Made by a program: the position numbers and the translations under genes
The notes under the pieces: generated by a model
Seen by the model: only the letters and a program-made list of their open reading frames with translations
Database searches by the model: none
Told to the model about the DNA's origin: nothing
Source: Desulfobacterales bacterium
GTDB taxonomy: Bacteria > Desulfobacterota > Desulfobacteria > Desulfobacterales > Desulfosalsimonadaceae
Direction of reading: 5' to 3'
Assembly (NCBI GenBank): GCA_018335195.1
Contig: JAGXKN010000001.1
Span: 1 to 64,000 of the forward strand
DNA: 64,000 nucleotides
Shown here: positions 1,768 to 43,036 of the stretch, in pieces
How positions within the stretch are numbered: the first letter of the stretch is position 1
Layout: the number at the start of each line of letters is the position of its first letter

Positions 1768-1813
1768 TTGACATCTTGAAAAATTATTTATATATTACAA
1801 TTTAACGATATAG
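1768..1813 (+). promoter_or_regulatory. arsR promoter with putative ArsR operator
   Basis: TTGACA at 1768-1773 and TATATT at 1791-1796 are separated by exactly 17 bases, a near-consensus sigma-70 promoter. Immediately downstream lies ATTTAACGATATAG. The same arrangement (TATATT, three bases, then AT-TAACGATATA) recurs in front of the permease gene at 8526-8548. The operator would cover the start of transcription, as expected for ArsR autoregulation. The promoter is seen directly; its binding by ArsR is inferred. Confidence 0.7.
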
Positions 1814-1862: not shown

Positions 1863-2237
1863 ATGAAAAAATTCACAAAGGTCATGAAGGCCCTGTCTGA
1901 TCCGAGCCGAGTCAAAATCGCAAAAATGCTGCAACGCAGAAAGATGTGCGTCTGCGAAATCCAGGAAGCCCTGAACATCGCCCAGTCCACGGCAAGCAAG
2001 CACCTGAAAATCCTGGAAGAAGCTGGACTGGCGACCTACAAAAAAGACGGCCTGTGGGTGAACTACACCCTGGCAGACGGATCTGACAGTCCGTATGCGG
2101 CCAGCATGATTGGAAACCTGAGACACTGGCTCGAAGACGACCCGGAAGTCGGCGAGCTGGTACGCCGGCTTCCGGAAATCCGGCGCGAGGACATTTGCTG
2201 TACCCGCACCCCCCGGGCCAGACAGGCACGGGGCTGA
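1863..2237 (+). CDS. arsR: ArsR-family arsenite-responsive repressor
   Basis: Winged-helix metalloid sensor of the ArsR/SmtB family, 124 aa. The recognition region contains STASKHLKILEEAGL, the typical HTH. Just before it lies MCVCE, whose CVC pair matches the arsenite-binding cysteines of classic E. coli-type ArsR (ELCVCDL). A Cys-Cys pair also occurs near the C-terminus (DICCTR) and could add a third thiol ligand. The start at 1863 is preferred to the upstream TTG at 1842 because GGAGG at 1850-1854 is correctly spaced from it. It is first in a long same-strand run of redox and arsenic genes and presumably represses its own promoter and the matching one near 8504. Confidence 0.9.
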   Translation: MKKFTKVMKALSDPSRVKIAKMLQRRKMCVCEIQEALNIAQSTASKHLKILEEAGLATYKKDGLWVNYTLADGSDSPYAASMIGNLRHWLEDDPEVGELVRRLPEIRREDICCTRTPRARQARG

Positions 2238-2264
2238 ATTTTTTTCAAAAAGAGGAGGTTTAAA

Positions 2265-2495
2265 ATGGATATCAAAGTACTGGGCCCGGGCTGCCCGAAA
2301 TGCGCCCAAACCGAAGAAACCGTCAAGCAGGCCATCGCAGAGGCCGGCGCGGAGGCAAACGTGGAAAAAGTCACCGATACCATGGAAATTGCCAAATACG
2401 GGGTCTTCGGCACCCCGGCAGTGGTGGTGGACGGCGAGGTCAAGATCGTGGGCAAGATCCCGAAAAAAGACGATGTGCTCAAGTGGATCAAGTAG
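2265..2495 (+). CDS. mini-thioredoxin (redox-active disulfide protein 2 family)
   Basis: A 76-residue stand-alone thioredoxin fold of the TM0996/MTH895 type: short beta strand, CPKC active site at residues 10-13, then VFGTPAVVVDG containing the cis-proline loop. These proteins act as cytoplasmic dithiol carriers and commonly sit beside arsR, where a role as reductant or metalloid carrier has been suggested. It has no signal sequence, so it is cytoplasmic. A strong AGGAGG lies about 7 bases before the ATG, and the gap to arsR is 27 bases, indicating one operon. The substrate cannot be told from the sequence. Confidence 0.88.
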   Translation: MDIKVLGPGCPKCAQTEETVKQAIAEAGAEANVEKVTDTMEIAKYGVFGTPAVVVDGEVKIVGKIPKKDDVLKWIK

Positions 2496-2524
2496 ATAAG
2501 GACCCGCCCGAAGAGGCAAACAAA

Positions 2525-3046
2525 ATGCTGCTGCAGTCTTACACAAAAAGCATTTTCCGGCCGGAGTGCAACCCGAGCTTTGAATCTGTTCACTGCATTG
2601 CCCGGCTGGATCAGGACATTTCCACGGCCCTGCCCTACTTGAATGCAGAGCTGGGCGGCACCCAGTATTTCAGGGATCCGCCTGCGGTCATGCTCCACGT
2701 GCACGGCAAGATCATCAAGGTCGGGGCCAACGAGATTGCTATCAACGCGCTTGAAGATGAGGCCGAAGCCGAAAAAATCCTGCAATGGCTCAGAAACGAG
2801 ATCAATCGGGTCTGGACGGAAAAAGACAGCATCACCCCGAGCGAGGAAAGCCGGGCAAAGCCGCAGATATTTGAAATTTTAAAGCTGCTGCCCAAAACCA
2901 ACTGCAGAAAATGCGGGCAGCCAACCTGTATGGTCTTTGCCGCCCAGGCCGCAGATGGCGGCCGGGGGGCTGAGGATTGCCCTGAGATCGACCCGGAAAA
3001 CAAGGAAAAGCTCAACACCTATCTTGCAGAATTTGACTTCGGATAA
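2525..3046 (+). CDS. 4Fe-4S cluster (Fe-S domain) protein
   Basis: Protein of 173 residues with an N-terminal alpha/beta region (about 1-110) of unknown function and a C-terminal iron-sulfur module. The cysteines are C127, C130, C135 and C152 (C-X2-C-X4-C-X16-C), as in the Fe-S domain seen in the corrinoid Fe-S protein and RnfB. It probably carries electrons for the neighbouring thioredoxin or reductase reactions, but no enzymatic domain is visible. The ATG at 2525 has GAGG about 8 bases upstream, and the upstream extension of the frame lies inside the thioredoxin gene and was not used. It is 29 bases after the mini-thioredoxin and in the same operon. Confidence 0.75.
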
Positions 3047-3093
3047 ATTCCAAGCAGGCACAAAACCGAAAACCGCGACAAGGCAATCGTTAT

Positions 3094-4185
3094 ATGACTG
3101 AATCTACAGCAAAAAAACTGCCGATTCTCGACCGATTCCTGACCTTGTGGATATTTCTGGCCATGACCTTTGGCGTCTCAGTCGGGTATTTCTATCCGGC
3201 CATCACCGAAGCCATGGACTACGTGACCGTGGGTACGACCAATATGCCCATTGCCATCGGCCTGATCCTGATGATGTATCCGCCCCTGGCCAAGGTGCGC
3301 TACGAAAAGCTGGGCGAGGTCTTCCGGGATTACAAGATTTTGGGCCTGTCCCTGGTGCAGAACTGGGTGATCGGGCCGGTCCTGATGTTTCTGCTGGCAA
3401 TTGCATTTCTGTCCGGTCATCACGAATACATGGTGGGCCTGATCATGATCGGCCTGGCGCGCTGCATTGCCATGGTGCTGGTGTGGAACGAACTGGCCCG
3501 CGGCGATGCCGAGTACTGCGCCGGGCTGGTGGCATTCAACTCGGTTTTCCAGGTGCTTTTTTTCTCTGTTTATGCCTGGTTTTTTATCACCATCCTGCCG
3601 GGCTGTTTCGGGCTGGAGGGCACGGCCGTGGATGTCACCATCGGCCGGATTGCCGAAAGCGTCTTCATCTACCTGGGCATCCCGTTTATCGCGGGGATTG
3701 TCTCGCGCTTTATCGGCCTGAAGACCAAGGGCGATGACTGGTACATGGGAAAATTCATCCCCAGAATCAGTCCGCTCACTCTGATCGCGCTGCTGTTCAC
3801 CATCGTGGTCATGTTTTCGCTAAAGGGCGAATACATCGTAAAGCTGCCGCTTGACGTCGTTCGCATCGCCATCCCGCTGTGCATCTATTTCGTGGCCATG
3901 TTTCTGATCACCTTTTACATGTCCATGAAGTTTAAGGCCACCTACGAGCAATCCACCACGTTGTCGTTTACCGCGGCCTCCAACAATTTTGAGCTGGCCA
4001 TTGCCGTGTCCGTTGCCGTGTTCGGCATAAACTCGGGCGTGGCATTTGCCGCGGTGATCGGCCCGCTGGTGGAGGTGCCGGTGCTGATCTCGCTTGTCAA
4101 CGTGGCCTTATGGTTGAAGCGAAAGTATTTCCCCTATGCCGTGGAGACCCCGACCGGCGTCTGCCACGTGACGTGCCGGGATTGA
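3094..4185 (+). CDS. acr3: Acr3-type arsenite efflux permease
   Basis: Integral membrane arsenite exporter of the Acr3 (BASS superfamily) type, 363 aa with about ten hydrophobic segments. The hallmark [16 protein letters not shown] is present, with the conserved transport cysteine at residue 124. Near the C-terminus, [18 protein letters not shown] matches the second signature of Acr3 proteins. It should expel arsenite made by the ArsC-like protein or entering from arsenate respiration. It lies 47 bases after the Fe-S gene within the arsR operon, and the linkage with arsR agrees with the call. Confidence 0.95.
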
Positions 4186-4212
4186 AAAAAAGAATATCCG
4201 AAAGGACCGCCA

Positions 4213-4731
4213 ATGATCCCGGAAATCAATCATGTGCTTTATGCAACAGACCTTTCAGAGGACGCGCCCAGAGCGCTGGCCTACGCAGTGGCCCTGGCCG
4301 ATAAATTTGCCGCATCCTTGACTGTTACCCACGTGATTCGCGAGACCAACCCCAATGCGGAGCTGCTGATCAGCGCTTTTTTGGAATATCGCTCCAGGGA
4401 AGAGATCAAGCAGAAAAGCCGGGGGCAGCTCGCCGAGGAAATAAAAGAGCGCCTGGCGCAAATGTGCAATGAACTCGGATGCCAGCTCCCGGACTGCCGG
4501 TTTTCCCTTGCCGATGTGATCGTGGAATTCGGCCAACCCCGGGAGATGATTCTGAATCATGCGGAAACCGGCAAATACGATCTGCTGGTAATGGGGCGCC
4601 ACGATTACGGATTCGTTGAAAGCGCCATAACGGGACATTCAACAAAAGGACTGCCCAGGCACACCCCCGTACCGGTCCTGCTGGTGCCAATGGCAAGCAG
4701 CACAGATCCGGCCGGGCAGCCGGGGGAATAA
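4213..4731 (+). CDS. universal stress protein (UspA) domain protein
   Basis: Cytoplasmic single-domain Usp protein of 172 aa. It opens with INHVLYATDLSEDAPRALAYAVALADKF, typical of the first beta strand and helix, and ends with the nucleotide-binding type signature DLLVMGRHDYG followed by HSTKGLPRHTPVPVLLV. The usual G-x2-G-x9-G(S/T) is only partly kept (GRHDYG...GHSTKG), so ATP binding is plausible but not certain. RBS AAAGGA precedes the ATG. It is 27 bases after acr3 and would be co-induced with the arsenic genes. Confidence 0.85.
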   Translation: MIPEINHVLYATDLSEDAPRALAYAVALADKFAASLTVTHVIRETNPNAELLISAFLEYRSREEIKQKSRGQLAEEIKERLAQMCNELGCQLPDCRFSLADVIVEFGQPREMILNHAETGKYDLLVMGRHDYGFVESAITGHSTKGLPRHTPVPVLLVPMASSTDPAGQPGE

Positions 4732-4757
4732 AATAAACACCCAAGACTAAAAATCCA

Positions 4758-4937
4758 ATGGAAACAAAGCAGGGAAATAGGTCCATGCGAAGGCTCAAGG
4801 ACATCCAGATGGAGCTGTCCACAGACGAGGTCCGGGAGATTCTCTCCATCGCCCTGGGCGAGGACCGGGAAAAGGCCATGGCTTTTATCCGGGACCATCT
4901 GGCAAAAAAAGTGGACAAAAAACTACAGGAGAGGTGA
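4758..4937 (+). CDS. small hypothetical protein, 59 aa
   Basis: Short open frame encoding a highly charged, helical protein of 59 residues. It contains STDEVREILSIALGED, then a run of Lys, Asp and Arg. No cysteine, signal or membrane segment is present. It fills the space between the Usp gene and the anchored thioredoxin on the same strand, which supports it being real. The start at 4758 has no strong Shine-Dalgarno; an internal ATG at 4785 with an upstream GGAAATAGG is an alternative. I do not recognise the family. Confidence 0.5.
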   Translation: METKQGNRSMRRLKDIQMELSTDEVREILSIALGEDREKAMAFIRDHLAKKVDKKLQER

Positions 4938-5036
4938 GTTCCGGTATTCGAGGTCAGTTACGGCCCCGGTCAGATGGATCGTTTCTCATAATCCAGGCAG
5001 TATCGCATACAAGAAAAGAAAAACATCAGGAAACCT

Positions 5037-5483
5037 ATGAAATCAAAAACAAAAATAACTATCAGTGCTGTTGCGGCGGTTGCTGCTGCGGCTTTGGTCT
5101 GGGGGCTGCTTCAGGCAGACACTGCATTTCAATCCGATTCCCGGTCTGCTTCGCCGGAGATACAAAGCAAATCCCCCGCCCCCGGAAAAGTCACAATGCT
5201 TGATCTGGGCGCGGACAAGTGCCGGCCGTGCAAAATGATGGCCCCCATTTTGGAAGAACTTGAAAAGGCCTACGAAGACCGGGCGGAAATCATCTTCATC
5301 GATGTCTGGAAAAACCGGGAGGTGGCGGAAAAATATGGTATCCGCGCCATTCCCACACAGATCTTTTTCAATGAAGAAGGCGAGGAGGTCCGGCGCCACA
5401 CCGGATTCATGGACAAAAAAACCATCATCAAAAACCTGTCCAATCTGGGGGTGACTCCTCCCGAAAAGTACCGGGATTCGTAA
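5037..5483 (+). CDS. membrane-anchored periplasmic thioredoxin
   Basis: Thioredoxin-fold protein of 148 aa with an uncleaved or cleavable N-terminal hydrophobic segment (residues 7-25), so the catalytic domain is extracytoplasmic. The active site is KCRPCKMM with Cys62 and Cys65, and the cis-Pro loop is RAIPTQIFF. The end of the domain, VRRHTGFMDKK, closely resembles the thioredoxin domain of the fusion protein at 10518 (VFRHTGFLTKD), suggesting a shared origin. It is followed 50 bases later by the first rhodanese gene. A reductant supply from the membrane proteins MauE-like (6036) or CcdA (9779) is inferred. Confidence 0.88.
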   Translation: MKSKTKITISAVAAVAAAALVWGLLQADTAFQSDSRSASPEIQSKSPAPGKVTMLDLGADKCRPCKMMAPILEELEKAYEDRAEIIFIDVWKNREVAEKYGIRAIPTQIFFNEEGEEVRRHTGFMDKKTIIKNLSNLGVTPPEKYRDS

Positions 5484-5533
5484 CCCGGCAGCAGGCAGGA
5501 AGCAACAGTACTGAAATAATGGCCCAGGAAACC

Positions 5534-6043
5534 ATGAATTCCGGCAAAGCCCGGATGATAAAGGCAACCGGGCAGGCGGCGGCAATCATTGCGATTGCCT
5601 GCATGCTTGCGGCGTGTGTAAACCTGCTGCGCGAAGACGGCATATCGTTTGTGGGCGACTGGTCCACTGATTCGCGCTTTATCGATGATTCCGGGCAAAG
5701 CCTGGTAATCAGCTTAACTGAGGCCAGCCGCCTGTACGCGCAAAAAAAGGCCGTGTTCGTGGATGCCCGCCCCAAAAGCCAGTATGAACGGGGCCGCATC
5801 AAGGGGGCAGTGAGCCTGCCCTGGCATGAGGTCAATAAACGATTCATGGAAGTCGCAGATCAACTGGAGGGCGGAAAAACCATCATTTGCTATTGCGACG
5901 GGGAAAGCTGCGAACTTAGCCACGACCTGGCGTTGTTTCTTTCAGACATGGGGTTTGAAAACACCCGTGTACTGGTAAACGGCTGGACAAAATGGCGGCA
6001 GGCAGGGCTTCCCACACAAACCGGAGGCCAGGGCAATGAATAA
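5534..6043 (+). CDS. rhodanese-domain lipoprotein (first copy)
   Basis: Sulfurtransferase-like protein with one rhodanese domain. The start at 5534 is chosen because AGGA lies 6 bases upstream; the ATG at 5519 lacks a Shine-Dalgarno. The N-terminus has basic residues, a hydrophobic stretch and a lipobox LAAC (Cys28), so it is probably a periplasm-facing lipoprotein. The domain shows VFVDARPKSQYERGRIKGA and the active loop CYCDGESCELS with Cys121 and a second Cys126. The second rhodanese at 11995 shares the LR-DGI--V-DWS linker, so the two are paralogues. The gene overlaps the MauE-like gene by 8 bases. Its sulfur donor and acceptor are unknown. Confidence 0.87.
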   Translation: MNSGKARMIKATGQAAAIIAIACMLAACVNLLREDGISFVGDWSTDSRFIDDSGQSLVISLTEASRLYAQKKAVFVDARPKSQYERGRIKGAVSLPWHEVNKRFMEVADQLEGGKTIICYCDGESCELSHDLALFLSDMGFENTRVLVNGWTKWRQAGLPTQTGGQGNE

Positions 6044-6512
6044 GGCGCATTTTTTAAAAACAGAAAAAACCTGCTTTGCGGCTGCAAGAATTTTTCTGGG
6101 CGCAGTCTTCTTGTATGCCAGCTATGACAAGATCCTGCATCCGCAGGCTTTTGCAGAAGCCGTCTACAACTACCAGATTCTTCCGGATGCCGCGGTAAAC
6201 CTGGTTGCCCTGTTTTTGCCGTGGATTGAACTTGCAGCAGGGCTTTGCCTTATTGCAGGAGCATGGCTGCCCGGGGCCACAATGATCTGCGCCCTGCTGA
6301 TGACCGCGTTTACAGCCGCCCTGGTCTTTAACGAGATCCGGGGGTTGGATGTTCACTGCGGCTGCTTTTCCACCCAGGCCACCCATGATCCGGCAAGCCT
6401 GTTAACGGTGCTCCGGGATCTCTTCTTTTTGGCGGTGTCGGTGTACCTGCTGGTGCGCGCCGTGTTTGCGCCCCTGAAAATAACAGGCAACATGCCCGGC
6501 CGGAGCGCGTGA
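6036..6512 (+). CDS. MauE/DoxX-like membrane redox protein
   Basis: Four-helix membrane protein of 158 aa of the MauE/DoxX type. Characteristic features are the start ARIFLGAVFLYASYDKILHPQAFAEAVYNYQILP, and a Cys-containing GLDVHCGCF before the last helices. MauE-like proteins are associated with disulfide handling in the periplasm (methylamine dehydrogenase maturation), and the two cysteines here could carry electrons across the membrane. It overlaps the rhodanese stop and is itself overlapped by the next gene (GTGA), indicating tight translational coupling. A quinone-oxidising role of the DoxD type is an alternative. Confidence 0.8.
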   Translation: MNKAHFLKTEKTCFAAARIFLGAVFLYASYDKILHPQAFAEAVYNYQILPDAAVNLVALFLPWIELAAGLCLIAGAWLPGATMICALLMTAFTAALVFNEIRGLDVHCGCFSTQATHDPASLLTVLRDLFFLAVSVYLLVRAVFAPLKITGNMPGRSA

Positions 6513-7957
6513 AAAGAATCCGGGCTGCTGATAAAGTTAAAAGGATTTTAACCGCTTTGACCCAAGAAGCGTACCAGGAGCAGACGTCATCATGCAACTT
6601 TGTCAGGCAGGTGATGGATGCATGTGCGGACTGCAACACCTGCCGCTTTTTAATGGATGAGAGCTGTCTGTTTTTCCCTGAGCTCTACAGGCTTTACGAC
6701 AAGGAGAAAGAAACCGGCCAGCCGCCTGCAGAAAAAGAACTGCACCGGCTGGCCGACATGTGCACCCTCTGCGGGCTTTGCCCGTGCCCCGACATCCGCG
6801 CAGACATTGTTCGGGCCAAAATCGCCCGGGCACAGGAAAAGGGTTTGCCGGCAGGCGTCCGCCTGCTGGCCGACGTGCAGAACGTGGGCCGCTGGGGCTG
6901 CCGCCTTCCGGGAATTTACAACGCCCTGCTCAGGGCCCCGGGCGCGGCCAGAACACTTAAACACCTGGCCGGCATTGCCAGGGACCGGGAGCTTCCCCGG
7001 CTCCCGAAAGAGGATTTTTTCTTTTGGGCAAACAGGAAAGGACTGACCGGCCTGCCATCTGGCAACCCGAAGGCAGCCTACTTTGCCGGGTGCACGGCCG
7101 CCTACCTGTTTCCCGAAGTGGCCAGGGCCGCAGTTGCCGTACTGAAAAAAAACGGAATTGCGGTTTATGTGCCGCCCCAGCAGTGCTGCGGTATGCCCAC
7201 CCTGCTGGAGGGAGAAGACAGCCTGACCCGCAGACGGGTAAACAAAAACCTCCAAGCCCTTCTGGATGCCGCGGAGTCGGGTTGCGACCTGGTGTGCTCA
7301 TGCCCCACCTGCGGATTTTTCATGAAGGTGCTTTTACAGGAAGGCGCCTTTTATTCCCGGGCCTACCAGGAATCGGTGAATGCTGGCGAAGATGAAATCC
7401 GGATTCCGGATAAAAGAGCGGGCATCAACCGGCATGTTTCGCTTCAAAAATCCGTATACGGAAAAATCCTGAAGGACGATTCATGCTTTTCCGATATCGA
7501 TCCGCTGGCGCGTATCAACCTTTCGGAAAAAATCCGGGACATGGGACAGTACCTGGACCACCTGCATGACAAGGGATACCTGGACACAAATTTTTGCCCT
7601 GTCAATGCCCGCATGGCCTACTTTGCCCCCTGCCACCAGCGGGAACAGGACATGGGCAGTCCCTACGAAAAAATTCTTGCCCTGGTTCCCGGCTTAGAGA
7701 TCAAGAGAGCGGGCGGGGCCATGGACTGCTGCGGCATGGGTGGAAGCCTCGGATTCAAGGAAAGCTTCCATGAAGCATCCATCCGGCTCGGCAGGCGGCT
7801 GGCTGAAAAAATCAGGGCAGCCGCCCCTGAGGCCATTGTGACCGAATGCCTGAGCTGCCGGCTTCAGTTCCGGCACCTGATGCCGGAGATCCGGGTGTTT
7901 CACCCGCTTGAAATATTGAAAAAAGCCTACGATAAAAAGGAGGATGAAAATGACTGA
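6509..7957 (+). CDS. 4Fe-4S and double CCG-domain protein (HdrD/GlpC-like)
   Basis: Iron-sulfur protein of 482 aa related to HdrD, GlpC and LutA. The N-terminal ferredoxin part has CADCNTC and later MCTLCGLCPCP, giving two cluster sites. Two CCG domains follow, with CCGMPTLLEG near residue 230 and CCGMGGSLGF near 413, each able to bind a non-cubane or 4Fe-4S cluster that handles thiol/disulfide chemistry in this family. No signal peptide is seen, so it is cytoplasmic or peripheral. The start is a GTG overlapping the previous stop. It probably exchanges electrons between a membrane or quinone donor and a thiol substrate. Confidence 0.85.
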   Translation: MKRIRAADKVKRILTALTQEAYQEQTSSCNFVRQVMDACADCNTCRFLMDESCLFFPELYRLYDKEKETGQPPAEKELHRLADMCTLCGLCPCPDIRADIVRAKIARAQEKGLPAGVRLLADVQNVGRWGCRLPGIYNALLRAPGAARTLKHLAGIARDRELPRLPKEDFFFWANRKGLTGLPSGNPKAAYFAGCTAAYLFPEVARAAVAVLKKNGIAVYVPPQQCCGMPTLLEGEDSLTRRRVNKNLQALLDAAESGCDLVCSCPTCGFFMKVLLQEGAFYSRAYQESVNAGEDEIRIPDKRAGINRHVSLQKSVYGKILKDDSCFSDIDPLARINLSEKIRDMGQYLDHLHDKGYLDTNFCPVNARMAYFAPCHQREQDMGSPYEKILALVPGLEIKRAGGAMDCCGMGGSLGFKESFHEASIRLGRRLAEKIRAAAPEAIVTECLSCRLQFRHLMPEIRVFHPLEILKKAYDKKEDEND

Positions 7958-8409
7958 AAATTGCTGCGAAACAACAGGGATCACTGCCATGCTGCTTCCC
8001 TGCTCGGGCGGCTCCAACGTGGGCCAGCTTGCAAACCGCGCCGCCGTGGAATTGACCACGGAGGGATTCGGCAAAATATTCTGCCTGGCCGGCATCGGCG
8101 GCCGCATCTCCGGCTTTGTCCAGTCGGCTAAGGATGCCGAATCCGTGATCGTCATAGACGGATGTGAAATCGGCTGCGGCAAGGCCACGCTGCAGGGTGC
8201 GGGGTGCGGGGGTGCCGCTGCCCCGCCACAGGCACCTGGTGGTAACCGAATACGGAATCGAGAAAAACAAGGATTTCAACCTGAATCCAGAAGACGTGGA
8301 CCTGGTAAAGCAGGCTGTGAAAAACGCGACCTCCGGGGCGGCATCCGAGGCCGGGGATCTGCCGCTGTCTGCCTACCCGGCACCCGGAGGCGGCTGCTGC
8401 TGCGGATAA
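7950..8409 (+). pseudogene. DGC-domain putative zinc-binding protein, frameshifted
   Basis: The first part encodes ITAMLLPCSGGSNVGQLANRA and IDGCEIGCGKATLQ, the hallmarks of the DGC (putative zinc-binding) family; the rest, HLVVTEYGIEKNKDFNLNPED, lies in another frame. The break coincides with a perfect tandem duplication of GGTGCGG at 8196-8202 and 8203-8209. Removing one 7-base copy restores a single 152-residue reading frame (counted from the ATG at 7944) ending in GGGCCCG at 8409. The start at 7950 is preferred because AGGAGG at 7938-7943 abuts the upstream ATG at 7944. It could be a genuine mutation, a phase-variable tract or an assembly error. Confidence 0.8.
8196..8209 (+). repeat. 7-bp tandem duplication (GGTGCGG)x2
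   Basis: Two adjacent copies of GGTGCGG inside the DGC-domain gene. Without one copy the downstream frame, which carries the conserved second half of the protein, becomes continuous with the upstream frame. A short perfect duplication of this sort is typical of replication slippage. Confidence 0.9.
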
Positions 8410-8492
8410 AAAGAAGGCTTTTCAGAAAGCAGCCCGATGGATTTGTAAATTGTTTAAAAACAATATGTTATGATTCCATCAGGCTTCTTTTT
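8408..8492 (+). terminator. nested stem-loop ending in T-run, possible terminator
   Basis: AAAAAGAAG(G)C at 8408-8418 can pair with GCTTCTTTTT at 8483-8492. Inside this, GATGGA (8436-8441) pairs with TCCATC (8475-8480), and a short ATTGTTT/AAACAAT stem sits at the centre. The right arm ends in TCTTTTT. It starts at the stop codon of the DGC gene and lies just before the ArsP-like promoter, so it probably separates two transcription units. Confidence 0.45.
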
Positions 8493-8503
8493 GGGCGCCC
8501 CTG

Positions 8504-8552
8504 TTGACAAAACAATTCTAATTCATATATTCCGATATAACGATATATATTC
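8504..8552 (+). promoter_or_regulatory. promoter and ArsR-like operator of the permease operon
   Basis: TTGACA at 8504-8509 and TATATT at 8526-8531 (16-base spacing) form a good sigma-70 promoter. Right after it lies GATATAACGATATAT, in the same position relative to the -10 box as the related sequence at the arsR promoter (18 of 23 positions agree from the TATATT on). The site contains a direct repeat of CGATATA. Control by the ArsR at 1863 is inferred. Confidence 0.7.
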
Positions 8553-8580
8553 ACGACCATATAAATCAGGGAGAATTACA

Positions 8581-9759
8581 ATGAATATCAAGGAACGCTA
8601 CAAACTCCTGCTGCTTGTGGTCTTTTTCCTGGTGGCCTATTATGTACCCTGGAACCATGAAATCATTCGCCAGGCCGGCCTGGAAGCCTTTATGATGCTC
8701 CGGGAATACGCCCGGGAGCATGTTTTGACCTGCCTGATCCCCGCATTCTTTATTGCCGGGGCCATTGCCGTGTTTATCTCCCAGGCCTCGGTGATCAAGT
8801 ATTTCGGGGCCCAGGCAAACAAGCTGCTGTCCTATTCCGTGGCTTCGGTCTCGGGCACCATCCTGGCGGTCTGCTCCTGCACCGTGCTGCCACTGTTTGC
8901 CGGCATATATTCCCGGGGCGCGGGCATCGGACCGGCCACGGCATTTCTGTATTCCGGCCCGGCCATCAACGTACTGGCCATCGTTTTCACCGCCCGGGTG
9001 CTGGGCTGGCAGCTCGGCCTGGCAAGGGCGATCGGCGCCATATTTTTTGCCGCAATCGTTGGGCTTTCCATGCATTTTATCTTCCGCAGGGAAGATGAGC
9101 AAAGAGCAGCCGGCGCCATGCATCTGCCCGAAGAAGAAGACACCGGCCGATCCCTTGCCCAGGAGGCAATGTTTATGCTGGTGATGGTCCTGATCCTGAT
9201 TTTTGCGGCTTTTGCAAAGCCCTCAGGGGATGCGGCCACGCTGTGGCAAGCCATATTTCATGCCAAGTGGATCATTACCGGAATTCTCCTGGTAATCCTG
9301 GGCTTTATCCTTTACTCTTGGTTTCAGCGAGAAGAGCTCGGACAGTGGGTGGACTCCACCTGGGGGTTTATGAAGCAGATTTTCCCGCTGCTTTTTGCAG
9401 GCGTGCTTTTTGCCGGTTTTTTCCTGGGCCGGCCCGGGCATCCGGCCTTGATTCCCGAGCATTTCGTGGCCGAACTGGTGGGCGGAAACTCTGTATGGGC
9501 CAACCTGTTTGCCGCCCTTGCCTCGGCGCTGATGTATTTTGCCACCCTGACCGAGGTGCCCATCCTCCAGGGACTATTGGGCTCCGGCATGGGCCAGGGA
9601 CCGGCCCTGACCATGCTTCTGGCCGGACCTGCGCTTTCGCTGCCAAACCTGGTGGTGATCGGCAGCGTCATGGGCTGGAAAAAAACCGGCACTTTCGCCT
9701 GCATCATCGTGGTGCTGTCCACTATCGTGGGCATGCTCTACGGCGCCCTTATAACATAG
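8581..9759 (+). CDS. ArsP-type permease (DUF318 family)
   Basis: Polytopic membrane protein of 392 aa with eight or more hydrophobic segments in two halves separated by a charged loop (about residues 195-215). The segment AVCSCTVLPLFAGIYSRGAGIGPATAFLYSGPAIN is the signature of the ArsP/DUF318 permease family, including a vicinal Cys-x-Cys; the second half repeats the pattern with TEVPILQGLLGSGMGQGPALTMLLAGPALS. ArsP members export trivalent organoarsenicals, and other family members have unknown substrates. The ATG at 8581 has GGGAG 8 bases upstream; the longer frame starting at 8470 runs through the promoter and was not used. It leads the second operon of the cluster. Confidence 0.85.
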   Translation: MNIKERYKLLLLVVFFLVAYYVPWNHEIIRQAGLEAFMMLREYAREHVLTCLIPAFFIAGAIAVFISQASVIKYFGAQANKLLSYSVASVSGTILAVCSCTVLPLFAGIYSRGAGIGPATAFLYSGPAINVLAIVFTARVLGWQLGLARAIGAIFFAAIVGLSMHFIFRREDEQRAAGAMHLPEEEDTGRSLAQEAMFMLVMVLILIFAAFAKPSGDAATLWQAIFHAKWIITGILLVILGFILYSWFQREELGQWVDSTWGFMKQIFPLLFAGVLFAGFFLGRPGHPALIPEHFVAELVGGNSVWANLFAALASALMYFATLTEVPILQGLLGSGMGQGPALTMLLAGPALSLPNLVVIGSVMGWKKTGTFACIIVVLSTIVGMLYGALIT

Positions 9760-9778
9760 AAAAACAAAGAATGACGAT

Positions 9779-10489
9779 ATGTTCGACCAATTTCTGATCA
9801 CCGTAAACCAGATGATGACAGGCGGCCTTGCTGCGGCTTCCCTGGGCGCATTTGCCTGGGGCATGATCAGCGTGCTCTTTTCCCCCTGTCACCTGGCATC
9901 CATCCCGCTGATCGTGGCCTACGTGGGCGGACAGCAGACTACTGTGAACCCGAAACGGGCCGGGTGGTACGCCGGGGCCTTTACCCTGGGGCTGTTTATC
10001 ACCATTGCCGCGGTGGGCATTGTGTGTGCCATGCTGGGCCGCATGCTGGGCGACGTGGGGATATGGCTTCAGGTGGCCGTAGGCGCGGTGCTGATCTGGG
10101 TGGCCCTGGGCATGATGGGCGTGCAGGCATGCACCATGTCCGGCGGGCTGCTCTACAGGCTCAATCTAAGGGGCATCCACGGGGCATTTGGCCTGGGACT
10201 GGCCTACGGGATCCTGTCCGGATCGTGCACCTTCGGCTTTATTGCGCCGATTCTGGCCATTGTCACCGTCCAGCAGGAAATTTTCGCCGGGTCCGTGATG
10301 ATGCTGCTGTTTGCCCTGGGCCACTGCCTGCCCATTGTATTTGCCGGAAGCTCTGCCGCGGCGGTGCGCAGGCTTACCGAAAGCGTCGCTTGGCAGGGGG
10401 CCGGGGTCTGGTTCCGCAAGGGCGCCGGGGTGGTCATCGGGCTGCTGGGCGTTTATTTTGTCGTTGGACCGTTTGCCGGCATCATCTGA
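9779..10489 (+). CDS. ccdA: CcdA-family thiol-disulfide transporter
   Basis: Six-helix membrane protein of 236 aa of the CcdA/DsbD-beta type, which moves reducing equivalents from cytoplasmic thioredoxin to extracytoplasmic thiol proteins. The two redox cysteines are seen in FSPCHLASIPLI (Cys37) and SGSCTFGFIAPI (Cys150), each near the start of a three-helix half. It lies 19 bases after the permease and 28 bases before the large thioredoxin-fold fusion, which is its likely partner. No cytochrome c maturation genes are near, so the client is more likely the local thioredoxins and rhodaneses than apocytochrome. Confidence 0.9.
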   Translation: MFDQFLITVNQMMTGGLAAASLGAFAWGMISVLFSPCHLASIPLIVAYVGGQQTTVNPKRAGWYAGAFTLGLFITIAAVGIVCAMLGRMLGDVGIWLQVAVGAVLIWVALGMMGVQACTMSGGLLYRLNLRGIHGAFGLGLAYGILSGSCTFGFIAPILAIVTVQQEIFAGSVMMLLFALGHCLPIVFAGSSAAAVRRLTESVAWQGAGVWFRKGAGVVIGLLGVYFVVGPFAGII

Positions 10490-10517
10490 AACAAAGCGGA
10501 TATTAAGAGGATATGAT

Positions 10518-11990
10518 ATGCATCAGACCATAAGGCATAAGGCATTTAAAAAGACATTGGGTACGTTTATAATCATGTCCGTTGCGCTTCTGCTCATCGC
10601 GGACCCGGGTTTCTGCCAATCGGCAGGCCAAACCGTTGATGAGAAATACCCGGGGCTTGCCAGCGGCGTATTGAAAAACGCCCGCCTCGAACCCATGGAT
10701 AAACAGATTCTGCTCAAATCAGAGGATGTTACAATCCGACGGACCGAGTTGACAGAGAAGCTCAATAACCTGGACGCCGAAATCCGTTCGCAGATGGAAA
10801 AAAATCTGCTCTTTTTGCTGGACCAGGAAGCGACCCGGAAAATTCTGCGAAACGAAGCAGAAAAAGCCGGACTGGCAGCCGGGGATATGAGCGAGCAGGA
10901 AATTTTCCAGGCCCTTATTGATCGCAAAACCGAAACAATGGAAGTCACTGAAAAAGAGGCCCGCAACTTTTATCGGAACAACAAGGACATGGTCCGGGAT
11001 ATGCCGTTTGAGCAGGTCAAAGACGCCATCCGCGGCTATCTGCTGCAGGAAAAAAAGCAGCAATTCTTTTCAGATTATGTTGGTGAATTGGCTGCGGATG
11101 TCAACATGCGGGTAAATAAGCAGTGGGTCACAAAGCAGAGCCGTATTGCCATGAACAACCCCGTGGACAAGGCCCGGAATTCAGGACTGCCCACAATGGT
11201 GGAATTCGGCGCCGACGGGTGTGAGCCGTGCGACAGGATGCAGCCAATACTGGATCAAATGCGCAAAGATTATCCGGACAGTCTCAATGTGGTATTCGTG
11301 CACGTGGGTGAAAATCAGATGCTGGCAGCCCGCTTCGGTGTCCGGTCAATTCCGGTGCAGGTATTCTACGATGAAAACGGCAAAGAGGTGTTCCGGCACA
11401 CGGGGTTTCTGACTAAAGACAAGGTTTACCGGCAGCTGGCTCAAATGGGCGTGGGTCAGCAATCTGAAGCCGTGTTCTCCCGCGGAAGCGGACCTGTTGA
11501 AGTTGTGCTTTATTCAGACTATTTTTGTCCCTCCTGCCAGAGACTCGAGGCCTACCTCGAGGAAAGCCTGCCTGAACTGGTATCTTCGGGACTAAAAGTA
11601 ACCTTTGTGGATGCGCCCTTCAATCAAAAATCCTCTTTATATGCCCGCTATTTTCTTTATGCCGCCAAAAAGGCGTCTTCGCTGGAATCGCTCATAGACG
11701 CCCGAAGTGTGCTCTTTGAGCTGGCCGAAAACCACAGCATTGAATCCGAACCGGACTTGCTCCAGGCCCTGAAAGAAAACAATGTGGATATCGAGCTTTT
11801 CGACACCCAGCCCCTGATGAATCAATGGAAAGAAATCATGGAGAAATACAATTTCCGCAGCACGCCCACCTGCGTGATTATCAAGCCCGGACAAAAACCG
11901 GAACAACACCGGGGCGCCAAGGCAATACCCGAGGCCCTGGACCGTTTGCTCGACGAAGTGTCACAAGAAGAATCGAAAGTTTCAGATTGA
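10518..11990 (+). CDS. secreted PPIase-like / thioredoxin / DsbA-like fusion
   Basis: Exported protein of 490 aa with three parts. A signal peptide (residues 10-34) is followed by a helical region (about 45-205) resembling the N-terminal part of SurA/PpiC-type chaperones but with no parvulin catalytic domain. Next comes a thioredoxin domain (about 215-315) with CEPC at 235-238 and RSIPVQVF as cis-Pro loop. Last is a second, DsbA/DsbG-like thioredoxin fold (about 325-480) with CPSC at 337-340 and RSTPTCVI. Two active sites in one periplasmic chain suggest an internal relay. The start at 10518 has AGAGG 7 bases upstream. CcdA just upstream is the obvious electron donor. Confidence 0.85.
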   Translation: MHQTIRHKAFKKTLGTFIIMSVALLLIADPGFCQSAGQTVDEKYPGLASGVLKNARLEPMDKQILLKSEDVTIRRTELTEKLNNLDAEIRSQMEKNLLFLLDQEATRKILRNEAEKAGLAAGDMSEQEIFQALIDRKTETMEVTEKEARNFYRNNKDMVRDMPFEQVKDAIRGYLLQEKKQQFFSDYVGELAADVNMRVNKQWVTKQSRIAMNNPVDKARNSGLPTMVEFGADGCEPCDRMQPILDQMRKDYPDSLNVVFVHVGENQMLAARFGVRSIPVQVFYDENGKEVFRHTGFLTKDKVYRQLAQMGVGQQSEAVFSRGSGPVEVVLYSDYFCPSCQRLEAYLEESLPELVSSGLKVTFVDAPFNQKSSLYARYFLYAAKKASSLESLIDARSVLFELAENHSIESEPDLLQALKENNVDIELFDTQPLMNQWKEIMEKYNFRSTPTCVIIKPGQKPEQHRGAKAIPEALDRLLDEVSQEESKVSD

Positions 11991-11994
11991 CGCC

Positions 11995-12522
11995 GTGAGA
12001 CATCAAAGGTTGCAAAACGTCAAAAACACCTTTTGGCAGGTGGCTGCTATTGTTATCATTGCGGCTCTCCCGGCCCTTGCGGTCAATGCCCTTCGGCCCG
12101 ACGGCATTGCACTTGTATCGGACTGGTCGCCCGCGGCCAGGCTGGAAGCTGCAACAGACGGCAGCAATATGATGATCCCGATGGAGCAGGCAGTTTCCTT
12201 CCATGAATCGCGGGAGGCGGTGTTCATTGACACCCGTTCTCCGGAAGCATTCTCCGAAGGGCGTATCACCGGCGCGATCAATATCCCGGAAAATGATATA
12301 TTCGATCGTCTGGCGGGCCTCATGGACGCAGTACCCGATAAAAACAGGATTCTTGTCGTTTATTGCAAGAAAGCCCCCTGCCCTCTGAGCCAAGAGTTGG
12401 TGCGGCTTCTCAAGGACATGGGCTATGAAAATGCCAGGTTCCTTGAAAACGGCTGGGCTGGTTGGCAGGACCGGGGATATCCTGCTGCCGAGGGGGAAAA
12501 GGGGTTAAATTTTTATTTTTGA
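11995..12522 (+). CDS. membrane-anchored rhodanese (second copy)
   Basis: Rhodanese-domain protein of 175 aa with an N-terminal hydrophobic anchor (residues 14-31) and no lipobox. The domain reads AVFIDTRSPEAFSEGRITGAINIP, then the active loop VYCKKAPCPLSQE with the catalytic Cys in YCKK and a second Cys five residues on. The linker LRPDGIALVSDWS matches LREDGISFVGDWS of the first rhodanese at 5534. The start is taken as a GTG five bases after the fusion gene stop, with no clear Shine-Dalgarno. As at 5037-6043, it follows a CXXC thioredoxin protein, so the thioredoxin-rhodanese pair occurs twice. Confidence 0.85.
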   Translation: MRHQRLQNVKNTFWQVAAIVIIAALPALAVNALRPDGIALVSDWSPAARLEAATDGSNMMIPMEQAVSFHESREAVFIDTRSPEAFSEGRITGAINIPENDIFDRLAGLMDAVPDKNRILVVYCKKAPCPLSQELVRLLKDMGYENARFLENGWAGWQDRGYPAAEGEKGLNFYF

Positions 12523-13877: not shown

Positions 13878-14729
13878 TTATAACAATTCCTTTTTACCGG
13901 TCTCCTGCCGGAGTCCGGCCTGCTTGAGCCAGTTCTGTATTTTTTCATCCAGCATATCCCGGACCTGCATGAAAACCTGCTTTTTTTCCTCTTCTGGGCC
14001 TTCGGCTTCCGCGGGGTCCGGCACCGGCCAGTGCAGGCGGCGGCTGACCCCGGGAAATACCGGGGTCTGCTGTTCGGCCACGGGACATACCGTGATCAGA
14101 TAGTCAAAATAGGTGATGCCGATATACTCCATGACGTTTTTGGACTTCTGGCCCCGGATGTCGATGCCGATTTCATCCATGACCGTCACGGTCAGAGGGG
14201 GAATTTCCTGCGGTGCAACCCCTGCGCTGCAGACCTCAAAAGCCGCCCCCCCCCTTTTTCGAAGCAGGGCTTCTGCCATCTGGCTGCGGCAGGAATTGCC
14301 GGAACACAGAAACAATACCCGGGAGGTATCGTTTGCCGGCACGGGCACCGGGGTTGACTGCACGGCCACCGCCCTTCTAGCGGCATCGGCCTCCAGCAAC
14401 GAATCCTGAATGGATGCCTGGCCCAGCCAGGCCAGCAGCGCCCGGACCGTTTGTTCTGAATTCTGACCCGGCCACTGGTAAAGGCGCCATCTTCCATGCC
14501 GGACGGCAACTAGCAGACCGGCGCTTTCCAGGATATGCAAATGCTTGGACAGGGTTGAGGGCGCCATTTTAAAAATCTCGGTAAAATGGTGAAGGGTCAG
14601 CGGACCGCCTTTTAAGCACATAAGCATCCGCACCCGGATAGGCTCTGATATGGCCCTGGCAATGCTGCAGATGTCATCCACCTTGAGTTCATTCATATTC
14701 TTGTCTGACTCCAAAAATTTGTCTTCCAT
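13878..14729 (-). CDS. ArsR-arsenate reductase (LMW-PTPase type) fusion
   Basis: Fusion of an ArsR-type winged helix (residues about 15-110, with APSTLSKHLHILESAGLL) and an arsenate reductase of the low-molecular-weight phosphatase fold (about 136-270). The CX5R loop is CSGNSCR (142-148), and VPDPA supplies the catalytic Asp. Cys215 (LITVC) matches the second redox cysteine of pI258-type ArsC, but position 222, where the third is expected, is Thr. The start is uncertain: Met1 at 14729 lacks a Shine-Dalgarno, and Met12 has GGAG 12 bases away. Divergent from the arrA gene, so it may repress the shared intergenic region. Function as arsenate reductase or as protein phosphatase-like sensor are both possible. 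Confidence 0.85.
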   Translation of the reverse strand: MEDKFLESDKNMNELKVDDICSIARAISEPIRVRMLMCLKGGPLTLHHFTEIFKMAPSTLSKHLHILESAGLLVAVRHGRWRLYQWPGQNSEQTVRALLAWLGQASIQDSLLEADAARRAVAVQSTPVPVPANDTSRVLFLCSGNSCRSQMAEALLRKRGGAAFEVCSAGVAPQEIPPLTVTVMDEIGIDIRGQKSKNVMEYIGITYFDYLITVCPVAEQQTPVFPGVSRRLHWPVPDPAEAEGPEEEKKQVFMQVRDMLDEKIQNWLKQAGLRQETGKKELL

Positions 14730-17513: not shown

Positions 17514-17547
17514 TCCGCCGGAAAACCAATTTGAGGAGGCTTAAAGC

Positions 17548-18273
17548 ATGAAATACGCAATGGTCATAGACCTCCAGCGATGCGTTGGCTGCGGGGCCTG
17601 CATTATCGCCTGCAAAAATGAGAACAATCTCACAGAAGGCATCAGCTGGTCCTACAAGATCACCGAAACCGTGGGGACATTTCCAAATGTGCGCTTTCAC
17701 TACATCCCCACACTTTGCAATCACTGCGCATATGCGCCCTGCGTGCGGGGATGCCCCACCCGGGCCATGCACAAGGCAGAAGGCGGGATCACCATGCATG
17801 ACCCCAACAAGTGCATCGGGTGCCGGTACTGCATTGCCAACTGTCCCTACGGGGTGATTTCCTATAACTGGGAGGAGCCGCACCAGCAATGGAGACAAAA
17901 AAAAGTGCTTATCAAGGACTGCACCACTTCCGGTGCTGAACAGGCATCTGCCTACGGCACCCCCCGCAGGCCCCCTTATGAAAATCCTGAGCGGGGCACA
18001 ACCCTTCCCGCGGAAAGGCCCATGGGCGTGGTGGAAAAATGCACTTTCTGCGACCACCGGCTGATGCGCGGACTGCTTCCCTACTGCGTGGAGGCATGTC
18101 CGGCAGACGCCCGGATTTTCGGGGACTTAGACGACCCGAAAAGCGAGGTAAGCAAGCTGATTGGCAAATACAGGCCTTACAGGCTAAAAGAGCACCTGGG
18201 AACCGAGCCCAAGATATACTATATCCGGAGCTTTAACCCCGGAACCTATACACAGACCAAAGGAGGATTCTGA
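17548..18273 (+). CDS. arrB: respiratory arsenate reductase Fe-S subunit
   Basis: Ferredoxin-like subunit of 241 aa with four 4Fe-4S motifs: CVGCGACIIAC near the N-terminus, CNHCAYAPCVRGC, CIGCRYCIANC and CTFCDHRL...YCVEAC. This is the normal layout of DmsB/PsrB/ArrB subunits that wire the catalytic subunit to the membrane. It has no own signal peptide, so it is presumably carried out with ArrA by the Tat system. A strong GAGGAGG lies before the ATG, 34 bases after arrA. Its stop overlaps the next start (TGATG). Confidence 0.92.
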   Translation: MKYAMVIDLQRCVGCGACIIACKNENNLTEGISWSYKITETVGTFPNVRFHYIPTLCNHCAYAPCVRGCPTRAMHKAEGGITMHDPNKCIGCRYCIANCPYGVISYNWEEPHQQWRQKKVLIKDCTTSGAEQASAYGTPRRPPYENPERGTTLPAERPMGVVEKCTFCDHRLMRGLLPYCVEACPADARIFGDLDDPKSEVSKLIGKYRPYRLKEHLGTEPKIYYIRSFNPGTYTQTKGGF

Positions 18274-19412: not shown

Positions 19413-19993
19413 TGTTTTTTCCCGAGGCGTTTGCGGCCATGGCGGCCTTTTATGCAGAGCCGGCCGCCGGGCTGGCTCAAAAGCTGGATCCGTTGTGCGG
19501 CCCGGAACCTGTGCACGAAGGCATTGCTCCCCTCGACATCCGGGAATTGAAAAACCGGTTTGAAACAACTGATCCCGATGAACTGCGCCTGGACCATGCA
19601 CGTCTTTTCGTCGGCCCGTTTGAACTGGTGGCACCGCCGTTCGGGTCGGTGTATCTCGACGGCAAACGGACCCTGATGGGCGAATCCACCCGTAGTGCAA
19701 TGGAATTATACCGCCGGGCCGGCCTGGATATGGCCGAGGATTTCAACAACCCCCCGGACCACGTGATTGCAGAGCTTGAGTTTCTGGCCTATCTTCATTC
19801 CGCCCGCCGGGCCGCAGATGACGATACCCAACACCTGCTCCGGGATCTGCATCACCAATTTGTCCGGCAGCACCTGGGCGCCTGGATAGAACCTTTTACC
19901 CGCAAGATGGAACAAGGCGCTGAAACCGGTTTTTATCAGCTGCTGGCTCCGGTCACCAACAGCCTTGTGCTGGCCGAGGCCCGGAGGGCCTGA
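19412..19993 (+). CDS. arrD: TorD-family assembly chaperone
   Basis: Cytoplasmic helical chaperone of 193 aa of the TorD/DmsD family, which binds the Tat signal and helps insert the Mo cofactor. Family features are DELRLDHARLFVGPFELVAPPFGSVYLDGKRTLMG and later DHVIAELEFLAYL, corresponding to the conserved Y/F-x-x-L-F-x-G and E-x-D-H motifs. The start at 19412 overlaps the arrC stop. It is the fourth gene of the arrABCD unit. Confidence 0.9.
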   Translation: MFFPEAFAAMAAFYAEPAAGLAQKLDPLCGPEPVHEGIAPLDIRELKNRFETTDPDELRLDHARLFVGPFELVAPPFGSVYLDGKRTLMGESTRSAMELYRRAGLDMAEDFNNPPDHVIAELEFLAYLHSARRAADDDTQHLLRDLHHQFVRQHLGAWIEPFTRKMEQGAETGFYQLLAPVTNSLVLAEARRA

Positions 19994-42297: not shown

Positions 42298-42317
42298 CAA
42301 AAAAAGGATGATTTTAA

Positions 42318-43031: not shown

Positions 43032-43036
43032 CGATT

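What the first reader, a model, noticed from the sequence alone, without database searches (positions are those of the whole stretch)
1863..12522. ArsR-controlled periplasmic thioredoxin/rhodanese relay: candidate undescribed system
Around an Acr3 pump, fifteen same-strand genes combine two anchored rhodaneses, two extracytoplasmic CXXC proteins (one with two active sites), two membrane thiol transducers (MauE-like and CcdA), a CCG Fe-S protein, a mini-thioredoxin, a second Fe-S protein, a DGC protein and an ArsP-like permease. All expected parts of an electron path from cytoplasm to periplasmic sulfane sulfur are present. Inference: the system handles thiolated arsenic (e.g. thioarsenate, common under sulfidic conditions) or repairs arsenite-blocked thiols outside the cell. 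Families are established; the joint role is not.
Basis: partly seen in the sequence, partly recalled or inferred. Interest (0 to 1): 0.85.

Follow-up and report, generated by a model that had tools for sequence, protein, structure and literature searches.

The report
Arsenic-switched periplasmic thiol and sulfur relay
Sulfate-reducing bacteria carry a conserved set of genes, apparently placed under an arsenic-sensing switch, that looks built to pass electrons out of the cell to sulfur-handling proteins on its surface; it may be part of how they cope with arsenic in sulfide-rich places.

Summary
It is not chance. Among 80 loci with relatives of rhodanese A, MauE accompanies 70 and at least two ars-type genes 39; CcdA is in 30 of those 39 but in 4 of the other 41. 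A promoter signature from 14 other loci finds exactly two strong sites in 64 kb, before arsR and before arsP, so both rhodanese blocks are probably under one ArsR. Linked ArsRs mostly keep a C-x-C arsenite-type motif. An ArrA-type cluster lies just downstream.

[quoted passage not shown] one TsoB sits inside such a cassette. Not found in print: the rhodanese/MauE pair, its OS_HP2 neighbour, the second operator. The pair also occurs without ars genes, so its chemistry is general. Arsenic-induced periplasmic thiol/sulfane-sulfur reduction is likely; thioarsenate as substrate is untested.

The parts
1790..1813 (+). promoter/operator-like signature (overlaps the -10 element) before arsR
   Evidence: matrix from 14 other loci, 32.7 bits; ArsR binding inferred
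1863..2237 (+). ArsR repressor, C29-x-C31 and C112-C113
   Evidence: PF01022, NF033788; Cys29 in 39, Cys31 in 37 of 42 linked ArsRs
2265..2495 (+). ArsE-type cytosolic mini-thioredoxin (CPKC)
   Evidence: TIGR00412 103.6 bits over cut-off 62
2525..3046 (+). Fe-S protein
   Evidence: PF04060
3094..4185 (+). Acr3 arsenite efflux pump
   Evidence: TIGR00832 451.3 bits over cut-off 282.8
4213..4731 (+). universal stress protein
   Evidence: PF00582
4758..4937 (+). 59-aa ORF, fifteenth gene, recurs in other loci
   Evidence: tblastn to L058, L082, L070 (twice), L081 at 43-48%; no Pfam match
5037..5483 (+). TrxP: membrane-anchored exported thioredoxin (CRPC)
   Evidence: PF00085; one N-terminal hydrophobic segment
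5519..6043 (+). RhoA: anchored rhodanese with C-x4-C loop (CDGESC)
   Evidence: PF00581; both Cys invariant in A1; rhodanese fold in AlphaFold model
6036..6512 (+). MauE-like membrane protein with CGC motif
   Evidence: PF07291 99.5 bits; CGC invariant in A2
6509..7957 (+). CCG-domain (GlpC/HdrB-like) Fe-S protein
   Evidence: PF02754, two stretches
7944..8409 (+). DGC protein, frameshifted here
   Evidence: PF08859 split over two frames; intact relative in L035
8525..8548 (+). second promoter/operator-like signature, before arsP
   Evidence: matrix score 32.5 bits
8581..9759 (+). ArsP_1 permease
   Evidence: PF03773 245 bits
9779..10489 (+). CcdA/DsbD_TM transmembrane thiol electron carrier (cysteines in FSPCHL and GSCTFGF)
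   Evidence: PF02683; sequence
10518..11990 (+). DblTrx: helical SurA/PpiC-like part + Trx (CEPC) + DsbA-like Trx (CPSC); parts are separate genes in other loci
11995..12522 (+). RhoB: second anchored rhodanese (CKKAPC)
   Evidence: PF00581, A1
13878..14729 (-). ArsR-ArsC (thioredoxin-type arsenate reductase) fusion, divergent
   Evidence: TIGR02691 118.5 bits, below cut-off 174.3; HTH_5
14931..17513 (+). ArrA-type respiratory arsenate reductase (RGRY motif)
   Evidence: NF041714 1333.8 bits, below its cut-off 1600; 6cz7 ArrA 1149.9 bits; motif rule from PMC6549141 passages
17548..19993 (+). ArrB-type subunit, NrfD-like membrane subunit, TorD-like chaperone
   Evidence: NF041715 332.1 bits, below cut-off 450; the other two match weaker models, below cut-offs

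Best explanation
It is an arsenite-inducible transmembrane thiol relay that reduces sulfane sulfur and disulfides on the outer face of the membrane. Arsenite releases ArsR from two operators and both gene blocks are expressed (inferred). Cytosolic ArsE (CPKC) hands electrons to CcdA, CcdA to the exported thioredoxins TrxP and DblTrx, and these reduce the C-x4-C loop of the anchored rhodaneses (inferred from motifs, topology and the TsoB fusion). The rhodanese takes a sulfur atom from a periplasmic donor onto its first cysteine; the second cysteine expels it as sulfide and leaves a disulfide, which the relay reduces (inferred). MauE (CGC), with OS_HP2 in other species, is a second outlet of the same kind (inferred). 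In a sulfidic, arsenate-respiring cell the likely donors are thioarsenates, polysulfides and arsenite-damaged thiols; Acr3 and ArsP clear the arsenicals that reach the cytosol.
For: Cassette on one strand: 247 of 250 nearest cassette genes share RhoA's strand in the 39 ars-linked loci; TrxP-CcdA within 600 bp in 25 of 30; RhoA-MauE within 1.5 kb in 67 of 70. The relay genes go with ars linkage: CcdA in 30 of 39 ars-linked and 4 of 41 other loci, TrxP 28 of 39 and 5 of 41. Two sites in the window at 32.7 and 32.5 bits, next 18.7, best of 20 random windows 15.5; outside the training loci, hits of 21 bits or more in 9 of 27 ars-linked, 3 of 33 unclassified and 1 of 7 MtnA loci. Small ArsR-RhoA-MauE sets in L056, L129, L167, L175 put an ArsR beside the pair itself. 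ArsR C-x-C: 39 and 37 of 42. TsoB aligns RhoA to 35-159, CcdA to 178-391, TrxP to 441-570 of one protein, and in L219 a TsoB follows ArsP-ArsE-DGC-TrxP-CcdA-Acr3 on one strand. Redox cysteines present. ArrA-type cluster adjacent. RhoA and acr3 within 12 kb in 10 of 37 genomes.
Against: No activity, expression or binding is shown. RhoA/MauE stands without ars genes in many loci: of 46 loci with long flanks, 27 are ars-linked, 2 sit by mtnA and 17 fit neither class, though L056 and L129 of these have ArsR. CcdA has no match near RhoA in L035 and L037, and L037 also lacks Acr3; the window genome has another DsbD. CDF transporters (21 of 80) and RND pumps (6 of 80) in these loci suggest a broader metal stress. 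The signature was not found at 21 bits in L129, L167 or L175, and L096 has two hits away from cassette genes. ArsRs were chosen by similarity to the window ArsR, which favours the motif. ArsR was seen in only 31 of 80 loci, partly because contigs are short. In most TsoB loci read (11 of 13) no Acr3 was found.
Confidence: 0.6

Rival explanations
1. The redox genes feed arsenate reductase: ArsE and Trx give electrons to thioredoxin-type ArsC in the cytosol, with CcdA accessory (the 2010 proposal of Castillo and Saier).
For: [quoted passage not shown] An ArsR-ArsC fusion lies close by.
Against: TrxP, DblTrx and both rhodaneses have an N-terminal hydrophobic segment and are predicted outside the membrane, where ArsC is not; [quoted passage not shown] The ArsR-ArsC query matched in only 12 of 80 loci, and its ArsR half could account for some of these.
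Confidence: 0.15
2. Sulfane-sulfur stress system: ArsR senses persulfide or polysulfide, like SqrR/BigR/SoxR/YgaV, and arsenic genes are passengers.
For: Sulfide-responsive ArsR-family regulators are known (PMC9774250, title and abstract start; PMC10451225 passages). RhoA's fold neighbours include the YgaP rhodanese. The RhoA/MauE pair stands alone in many genomes.
Against: The linked ArsRs carry C29-x-C31 (39 and 37 of 42), not a pair spaced like Cys50/Cys116 of SoxR; BigR model 37 bits against cut-off 155. Arsenic pumps are frequent neighbours.
Confidence: 0.15
3. General thiophilic-metal resistance island in which efflux pumps, CDF, RND and redox genes accumulate by selection, without a joint pathway.
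For: Variable content even among the nearest relatives (L035-L039); CDF 21 of 80, RND 6 of 80.
Against: Close spacing of TrxP-CcdA and RhoA-MauE and strand agreement 247 of 250; shared promoter signature; fusion of the same domains in TsoB and a TsoB inside one cassette.
Confidence: 0.1

Closest known systems
[quoted passage not shown]
   Same: Same trio: CcdA, Trx, and by its name the ArsE/TIGR00412-type protein (equation of the two names is mine), with ars genes.
   Different: No rhodanese, MauE, DGC or OS_HP2 in the passages seen; read there as feeding ArsC.
TsoB / Tso 'three selenoprotein operon' (NF045694; Haft and Tolstoy 2025, paper not held; seen only through review PMC13188914, passages)
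   Same: Rhodanese, DsbD and Trx parts in one protein; two TGA codons in 22 of 23 rows over cut-off, catalogued as UxxxxU, the spacing of C-x4-C here; ArsR-type gene in 10 of 13 loci; in L219 TsoB stands in a cassette with ArsP, ArsE, DGC, TrxP, CcdA and Acr3.
   Different: Here three separate Cys genes. In the 13 TsoB loci read, no MauE matched, and Acr3 only in L219 and L224. Mostly a separate setting with like architecture.
ArsEFG (Chen et al. 2019; title seen in a reference list; role recalled)
   Same: ArsE family protein; L035 carries ArsE, ArsF and ArsG together with RhoA-MauE.
   Different: Window has ArsE, but CcdA does not match ArsG and no scanned window protein matched ArsF.
OS_HP2 (seleno)protein, DUF1573 with UGC (NF041425; PMC9312934 passages, lists a DUF1573 UGC selenoprotein)
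   Same: Within 1.2 kb of MauE on the same strand in 15 of 17 loci holding both; UGCT in 9 of the 10 loci read through.
   Different: Not in the window cassette; the window genome has one on contig C76.
YgaVP and SqrR/BigR persulfide systems
   Same: ArsR-family regulator; for YgaVP a membrane rhodanese (recalled).
   Different: Different cysteine pattern in the regulator; that they lack a CcdA relay is recalled, not tested.

Membership tests
CcdA-Trx-RDP2 ars operon (Castillo and Saier) | CcdA, thioredoxin and TIGR00412-type protein with ars genes | tested here: met
CcdA-Trx-RDP2 ars operon (Castillo and Saier) | arsC in the same operon (7 of 8 published cases) | tested here: not met
   ArsC is part of an ArsR-ArsC fusion at 13878-14729 on the other strand
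Tso system | TsoB-length fusion over cut-off 805 bits with Sec | tested here: not met
   RhoA, CcdA, TrxP are separate: 41.8, 43.9 and 25.5 bits
Tso system | TsoR regulator (cut-off 115) | tested here: not met
   43 bits
ArsEFG | ArsE present | tested here: met
   TIGR00412 103.6 bits
ArsEFG | ArsF and ArsG present | tested here: not met
   no NF040494/NF040495 match among the window proteins scanned; both match in L035
Persulfide-sensing ArsR (SqrR/BigR/SoxR) | two distant conserved Cys as in SoxR Cys50/Cys116 | tested here: not met
   conserved pair is C29-x-C31; C112 in 22 of 42
Arsenite-sensing ArsR | C-x-C motif | tested here: met
   that this motif binds As(III) is recalled knowledge of E. 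coli ArsR
Arsenite-sensing ArsR | release from DNA by As(III) | not testable with these tools
   needs a binding assay
ArrA respiratory arsenate reductase | (R/K)GRY motif rather than XGRGWG of ArxA | tested here: met
   MRGRYTY in 14931-17513
ArrA respiratory arsenate reductase | NF041714 curated cut-off 1600 bits | tested here: not met
   1333.8 bits, though the best family by far, next 244.3; so 'ArrA-type', divergent
Rhodanese | rhodanese domain and fold | tested here: met
   PF00581; model mean pLDDT 82.9 with PDB rhodaneses among the best matches
Rhodanese | persulfide-forming activity | not testable with these tools
   needs an enzyme assay

The most novel reading that the evidence does not exclude
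The cassette is a genetic determinant of thioarsenate handling: an arsenite-induced, membrane-spanning thioarsenate desulfurase in which an anchored rhodanese strips sulfane sulfur from thioarsenate outside the cytosol and a dedicated ArsE-CcdA-Trx chain (in other species with a MauE/OS_HP2 selenoprotein branch) reduces it to sulfide.
Probability: 0.2. Interest if true: 0.85.

Novelty: new variant of a known kind. Interest (0 to 1): 0.58.

Why it matters
[quoted passage not shown] This cassette gives a concrete, conserved and testable gene set, present in at least one isolate with a strain number (Desulfobacter vibrioformis DSM 8776, L098) and next to an ArrA-type reductase in the window. It also supplies a genomic context for OS_HP2, a predicted selenoprotein, and places one TsoB in an arsenic setting (L219).

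Tried and rejected
Selenocysteine in RhoA: 14 rows are flagged with a TGA inside; in the seven read the TGA is the terminal stop and the loop is C-x4-C; the other seven were not read. TsoB loci as free of ars genes: my first reading (12 loci) used stretches cut close to TsoB and missed genes; re-read with wider flanks (13 loci) Acr3 appears in two and a full cassette in one, so that claim was dropped. Plasmid carriage: no match of RhoA-MauE DNA by blastn in the plasmid collection; no protein search was made there. Another substrate from non-ars RhoA/MauE neighbours: 12 loci inspected by eye, no shared theme. The same signature before arrA: no third strong site. MauE profile and one DGC protein against solved structures: no match. 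Literature searches: no paper in the lists shown describes rhodanese + MauE + ArsR; some lists were capped (one search showed 12 of 26) and the library misses most subscription journals.

Dropped rows: one search used 81 RhoA rows of at least 86.9 bits (so 33 of the 113 RhoA genomes, with weaker matches, count as negative) and only acr3 places that one search printed. One search took ArsR hits of at least 40% identity within 9 kb. The 80 loci are the best 80 of 128 relatives. One of the 14 training sites (L056) is from the window's genus; the sites were picked by eye.
Full report
What is there. The window is contig C61, bases 1-64000, of a 3.29 Mb, 99-contig genome. Between 1863 and 12522 lie 14 recognisable + strand genes and a 59-aa ORF: ArsR, ArsE, FeS, Acr3, Usp, ORF59, TrxP, RhoA, MauE, CCG, DGC, ArsP, CcdA, DblTrx, RhoB. 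DGC is frameshifted at a GC-rich direct repeat; whether that is biology or assembly cannot be told here. Then follow a thiM-type and a MOSC gene and an ArsR-ArsC fusion on the other strand, and an ArrA-type cluster with RGRY motif. ArrA and ArrB score best in their families but below the curated cut-offs (1333.8 of 1600 and 332.1 of 450 bits), so they are divergent.

Topology and redox sites. TrxP, RhoA, RhoB and DblTrx each have one N-terminal hydrophobic segment; ArsE, FeS and CCG have none; CcdA has six and ArsP nine. Redox motifs read directly: ArsE CPKC, TrxP CRPC, DblTrx CEPC and CPSC, CcdA FSPCHL and GSCTFGF, MauE CGC, rhodaneses C-x4-C. Both rhodanese cysteines are invariant in 15 aligned sequences including RhoB, and the MauE CGC in 8. 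The AlphaFold model of RhoA (mean pLDDT 82.9) matches PDB rhodaneses, YgaP among them. DblTrx models as a helical part and two Trx-like parts (mean pLDDT 84.6, pTM 0.53); L061, L065 and L106 have exported CPPC proteins of 196-230 aa that match it, and several loci have one-site proteins of 312-360 aa, so the window gene looks like a fusion.

Conservation. In the window's family, RhoA as query matches 29 of 36 genomes at E of 1e-8 or less, 24 of them at 1e-30 or less. Near relatives vary: L036 lacks FeS, Usp, CCG and DGC; L037 lacks Acr3 and CcdA and has only a CCG remnant; L038 has only ArsR-RhoA-MauE; L035, of another genus, lacks TrxP, CcdA, DblTrx and RhoB and has ArsF, ArsG and a YeeE/TsuA-like transporter instead. 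A scan of genome contigs with the RhoA alignment gave 128 relatives, of which the best 80 were kept; 77 titles name deltaproteobacterial or desulfobacterial taxa and three say only proteobacterium. Of the 80 loci, tblastn finds MauE in 70, ArsE 36, CcdA 34, ArsP 33, TrxP 33, ArsR 31, Acr3 27 (20 of them at 40% identity or more), CDF 21, OS_HP2 20, FeS 19, DGC 15, DblTrx 15, ArsR-ArsC query 12, MtnA 7, CCG 6, RND 6, Usp 2, ArrA 2. At least two of ArsR, ArsP, ArsE, Acr3, ArsR-ArsC occur in 39 of 80; none of the 7 MtnA loci is among them; 34 fit neither, many on short contigs. TrxP, CcdA, RhoA and MauE occur together in 29 of 80; CcdA is in 30 of the 39 ars-linked and 4 of the other 41 loci. Of the 46 loci with at least 5 kb upstream and 3 kb downstream, 27 are ars-linked, 2 MtnA, 17 neither. 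In a second sample, 113 of 395 genomes of the phylum have a RhoA match at E of 1e-18 or less and 222 of 395 have Acr3. With the 81 stronger RhoA rows, 57 of 80 RhoA genomes have Acr3 against 165 of 315 others (Fisher p = 0.0024), and in 10 of the 37 genomes where both places were listed they lie within 12 kb. Chance would give about 0.2 (inference: 24 kb in about 3.7 Mb).

Regulation. Upstream of ArsR in many loci is a TTGACA/TATATT promoter followed by a conserved box. A matrix from 14 such sites scores 32.7 bits at 1790-1813 and 32.5 at 8525-8548 in the window; the next site is 18.7, and 20 random windows reach 8.8 to 15.5. Outside the training loci, hits of 21 bits or more occur in 9 of 27 ars-linked loci, 3 of 33 unclassified and 1 of 7 MtnA loci, for example before ArsR in L090, L093 and L098, before ArsP in L055 and before ArsE in L058; L096 has two hits away from cassette genes, and L129, L167 and L175 (small ArsR-RhoA-MauE sets) have none. 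The box overlaps the -10 element; ArsR binding is inferred. In 42 linked ArsRs Cys29 is kept in 39, Cys31 in 37 and Cys112 in 22. Sulfane-sulfur sensors share two distant cysteines (SoxR Cys50 and Cys116, PMC10451225 passages), a different pattern.

Rosetta stone and selenium. NCBIfam TsoB is one protein with rhodanese, DsbD and Trx parts; RhoA aligns to 35-159, CcdA to 178-391, TrxP to 441-570, all far below the cut-off. TsoB over cut-off is in 22 of 395 genomes, 22 of 23 rows with two TGA codons, catalogued as UxxxxU (PMC13188914 passages), the spacing of C-x4-C here. Thirteen TsoB loci were read with wide flanks: an ArsR-like gene (30-38%) in 10, no MauE in any, Acr3 in two. In one of these, L219, the order on one strand is ArsP-type permease, ArsE (72%), DGC (63%), TrxP (61%), CcdA (66%), Acr3 (76%), TsoB: the selenoprotein stands where RhoA-MauE stands in other cassettes. 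Downstream of MauE, loci carry OS_HP2 (NF041425, DUF1573): of 10 read through TGA, 9 show UGCT and one (L108) is broken; two of these and an L098 copy without internal TGA exceed the family cut-off. The window genome has such a gene with UGCT elsewhere (G000:C76:52752). No SECIS search was made.

How it most likely works, and what is only inferred. Shown: gene set, order, conservation, a shared promoter signature, motifs. Inferred: direction of electron flow (ArsE to CcdA to TrxP/DblTrx to rhodanese), persulfide chemistry, arsenic induction, substrate. The relay logic follows DsbD/CcdA biochemistry (recalled) and a published model in which CcdA feeds periplasmic thioredoxins that may reduce polysulfides (PMC3543383 passages). 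That RhoA/MauE also stands alone in housekeeping settings says that its reaction is probably a general one on periplasmic sulfur; the cassette puts a copy under arsenic control. Where CcdA is missing (L035, L037) another DsbD-type protein would have to serve.

What is known. [quoted passage not shown] The P. carbinolicus paper (passages) noted a CCG oxidoreductase beside an ArsR gene and a DUF318 membrane protein. Not seen in the lists my searches returned: the rhodanese/MauE pair as an ars-linked module, its OS_HP2 neighbour, or the two-site layout. Hence 'new variant of a known kind'. Interest is held at 0.58: solid comparative evidence and an open question made testable, but the substrate is unproven and part is in print.

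Noticed in passing
window 7944-8409: DGC gene frameshifted at a GC-rich direct repeat; the relative in L035 is intact.
   Followed up: partly
window 4758-4937: 59-aa ORF without Pfam match; homologues in L058, L070 (two), L081, L082.
   Followed up: partly
window 14931-19993: Divergent ArrA-type arsenate reductase cluster next to the cassette, below NCBIfam cut-offs; ArrA-like matches (61-68%) also near RhoA in L064 and L091.
   Followed up: partly
window 20093-21457: CoA-disulfide-reductase-like FAD enzyme after torD; relatives also lie near RhoA in L036, L065, L177, L178, L183.
   Followed up: no
L069, L070, L079, L082, L084, L089, L096, L101, L116, after RhoA or MauE: OS_HP2/DUF1573 genes with in-frame TGA giving UGCT, predicted selenoproteins; L123 and L127 have similar ORFs ending in TGA at that place, not read through.
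   Followed up: partly
L219 10471-15872: TsoB selenoprotein gene directly after ArsP-ArsE-DGC-TrxP-CcdA-Acr3 on one strand, in the place of RhoA-MauE.
   Followed up: partly
L043, L046, L112, L121: A CDF metal transporter gene lies between RhoA and MauE in the mtnA setting as well as in ars cassettes.
   Followed up: no
window 24452-26698: Second molybdopterin oxidoreductase; best NCBIfam match formate dehydrogenase alpha, far below cut-off.
   Followed up: no
window 40225-43501: TonB-dependent receptor followed by two proteins with DUF4198 matches (the second weak), possibly metal uptake.
   Followed up: no
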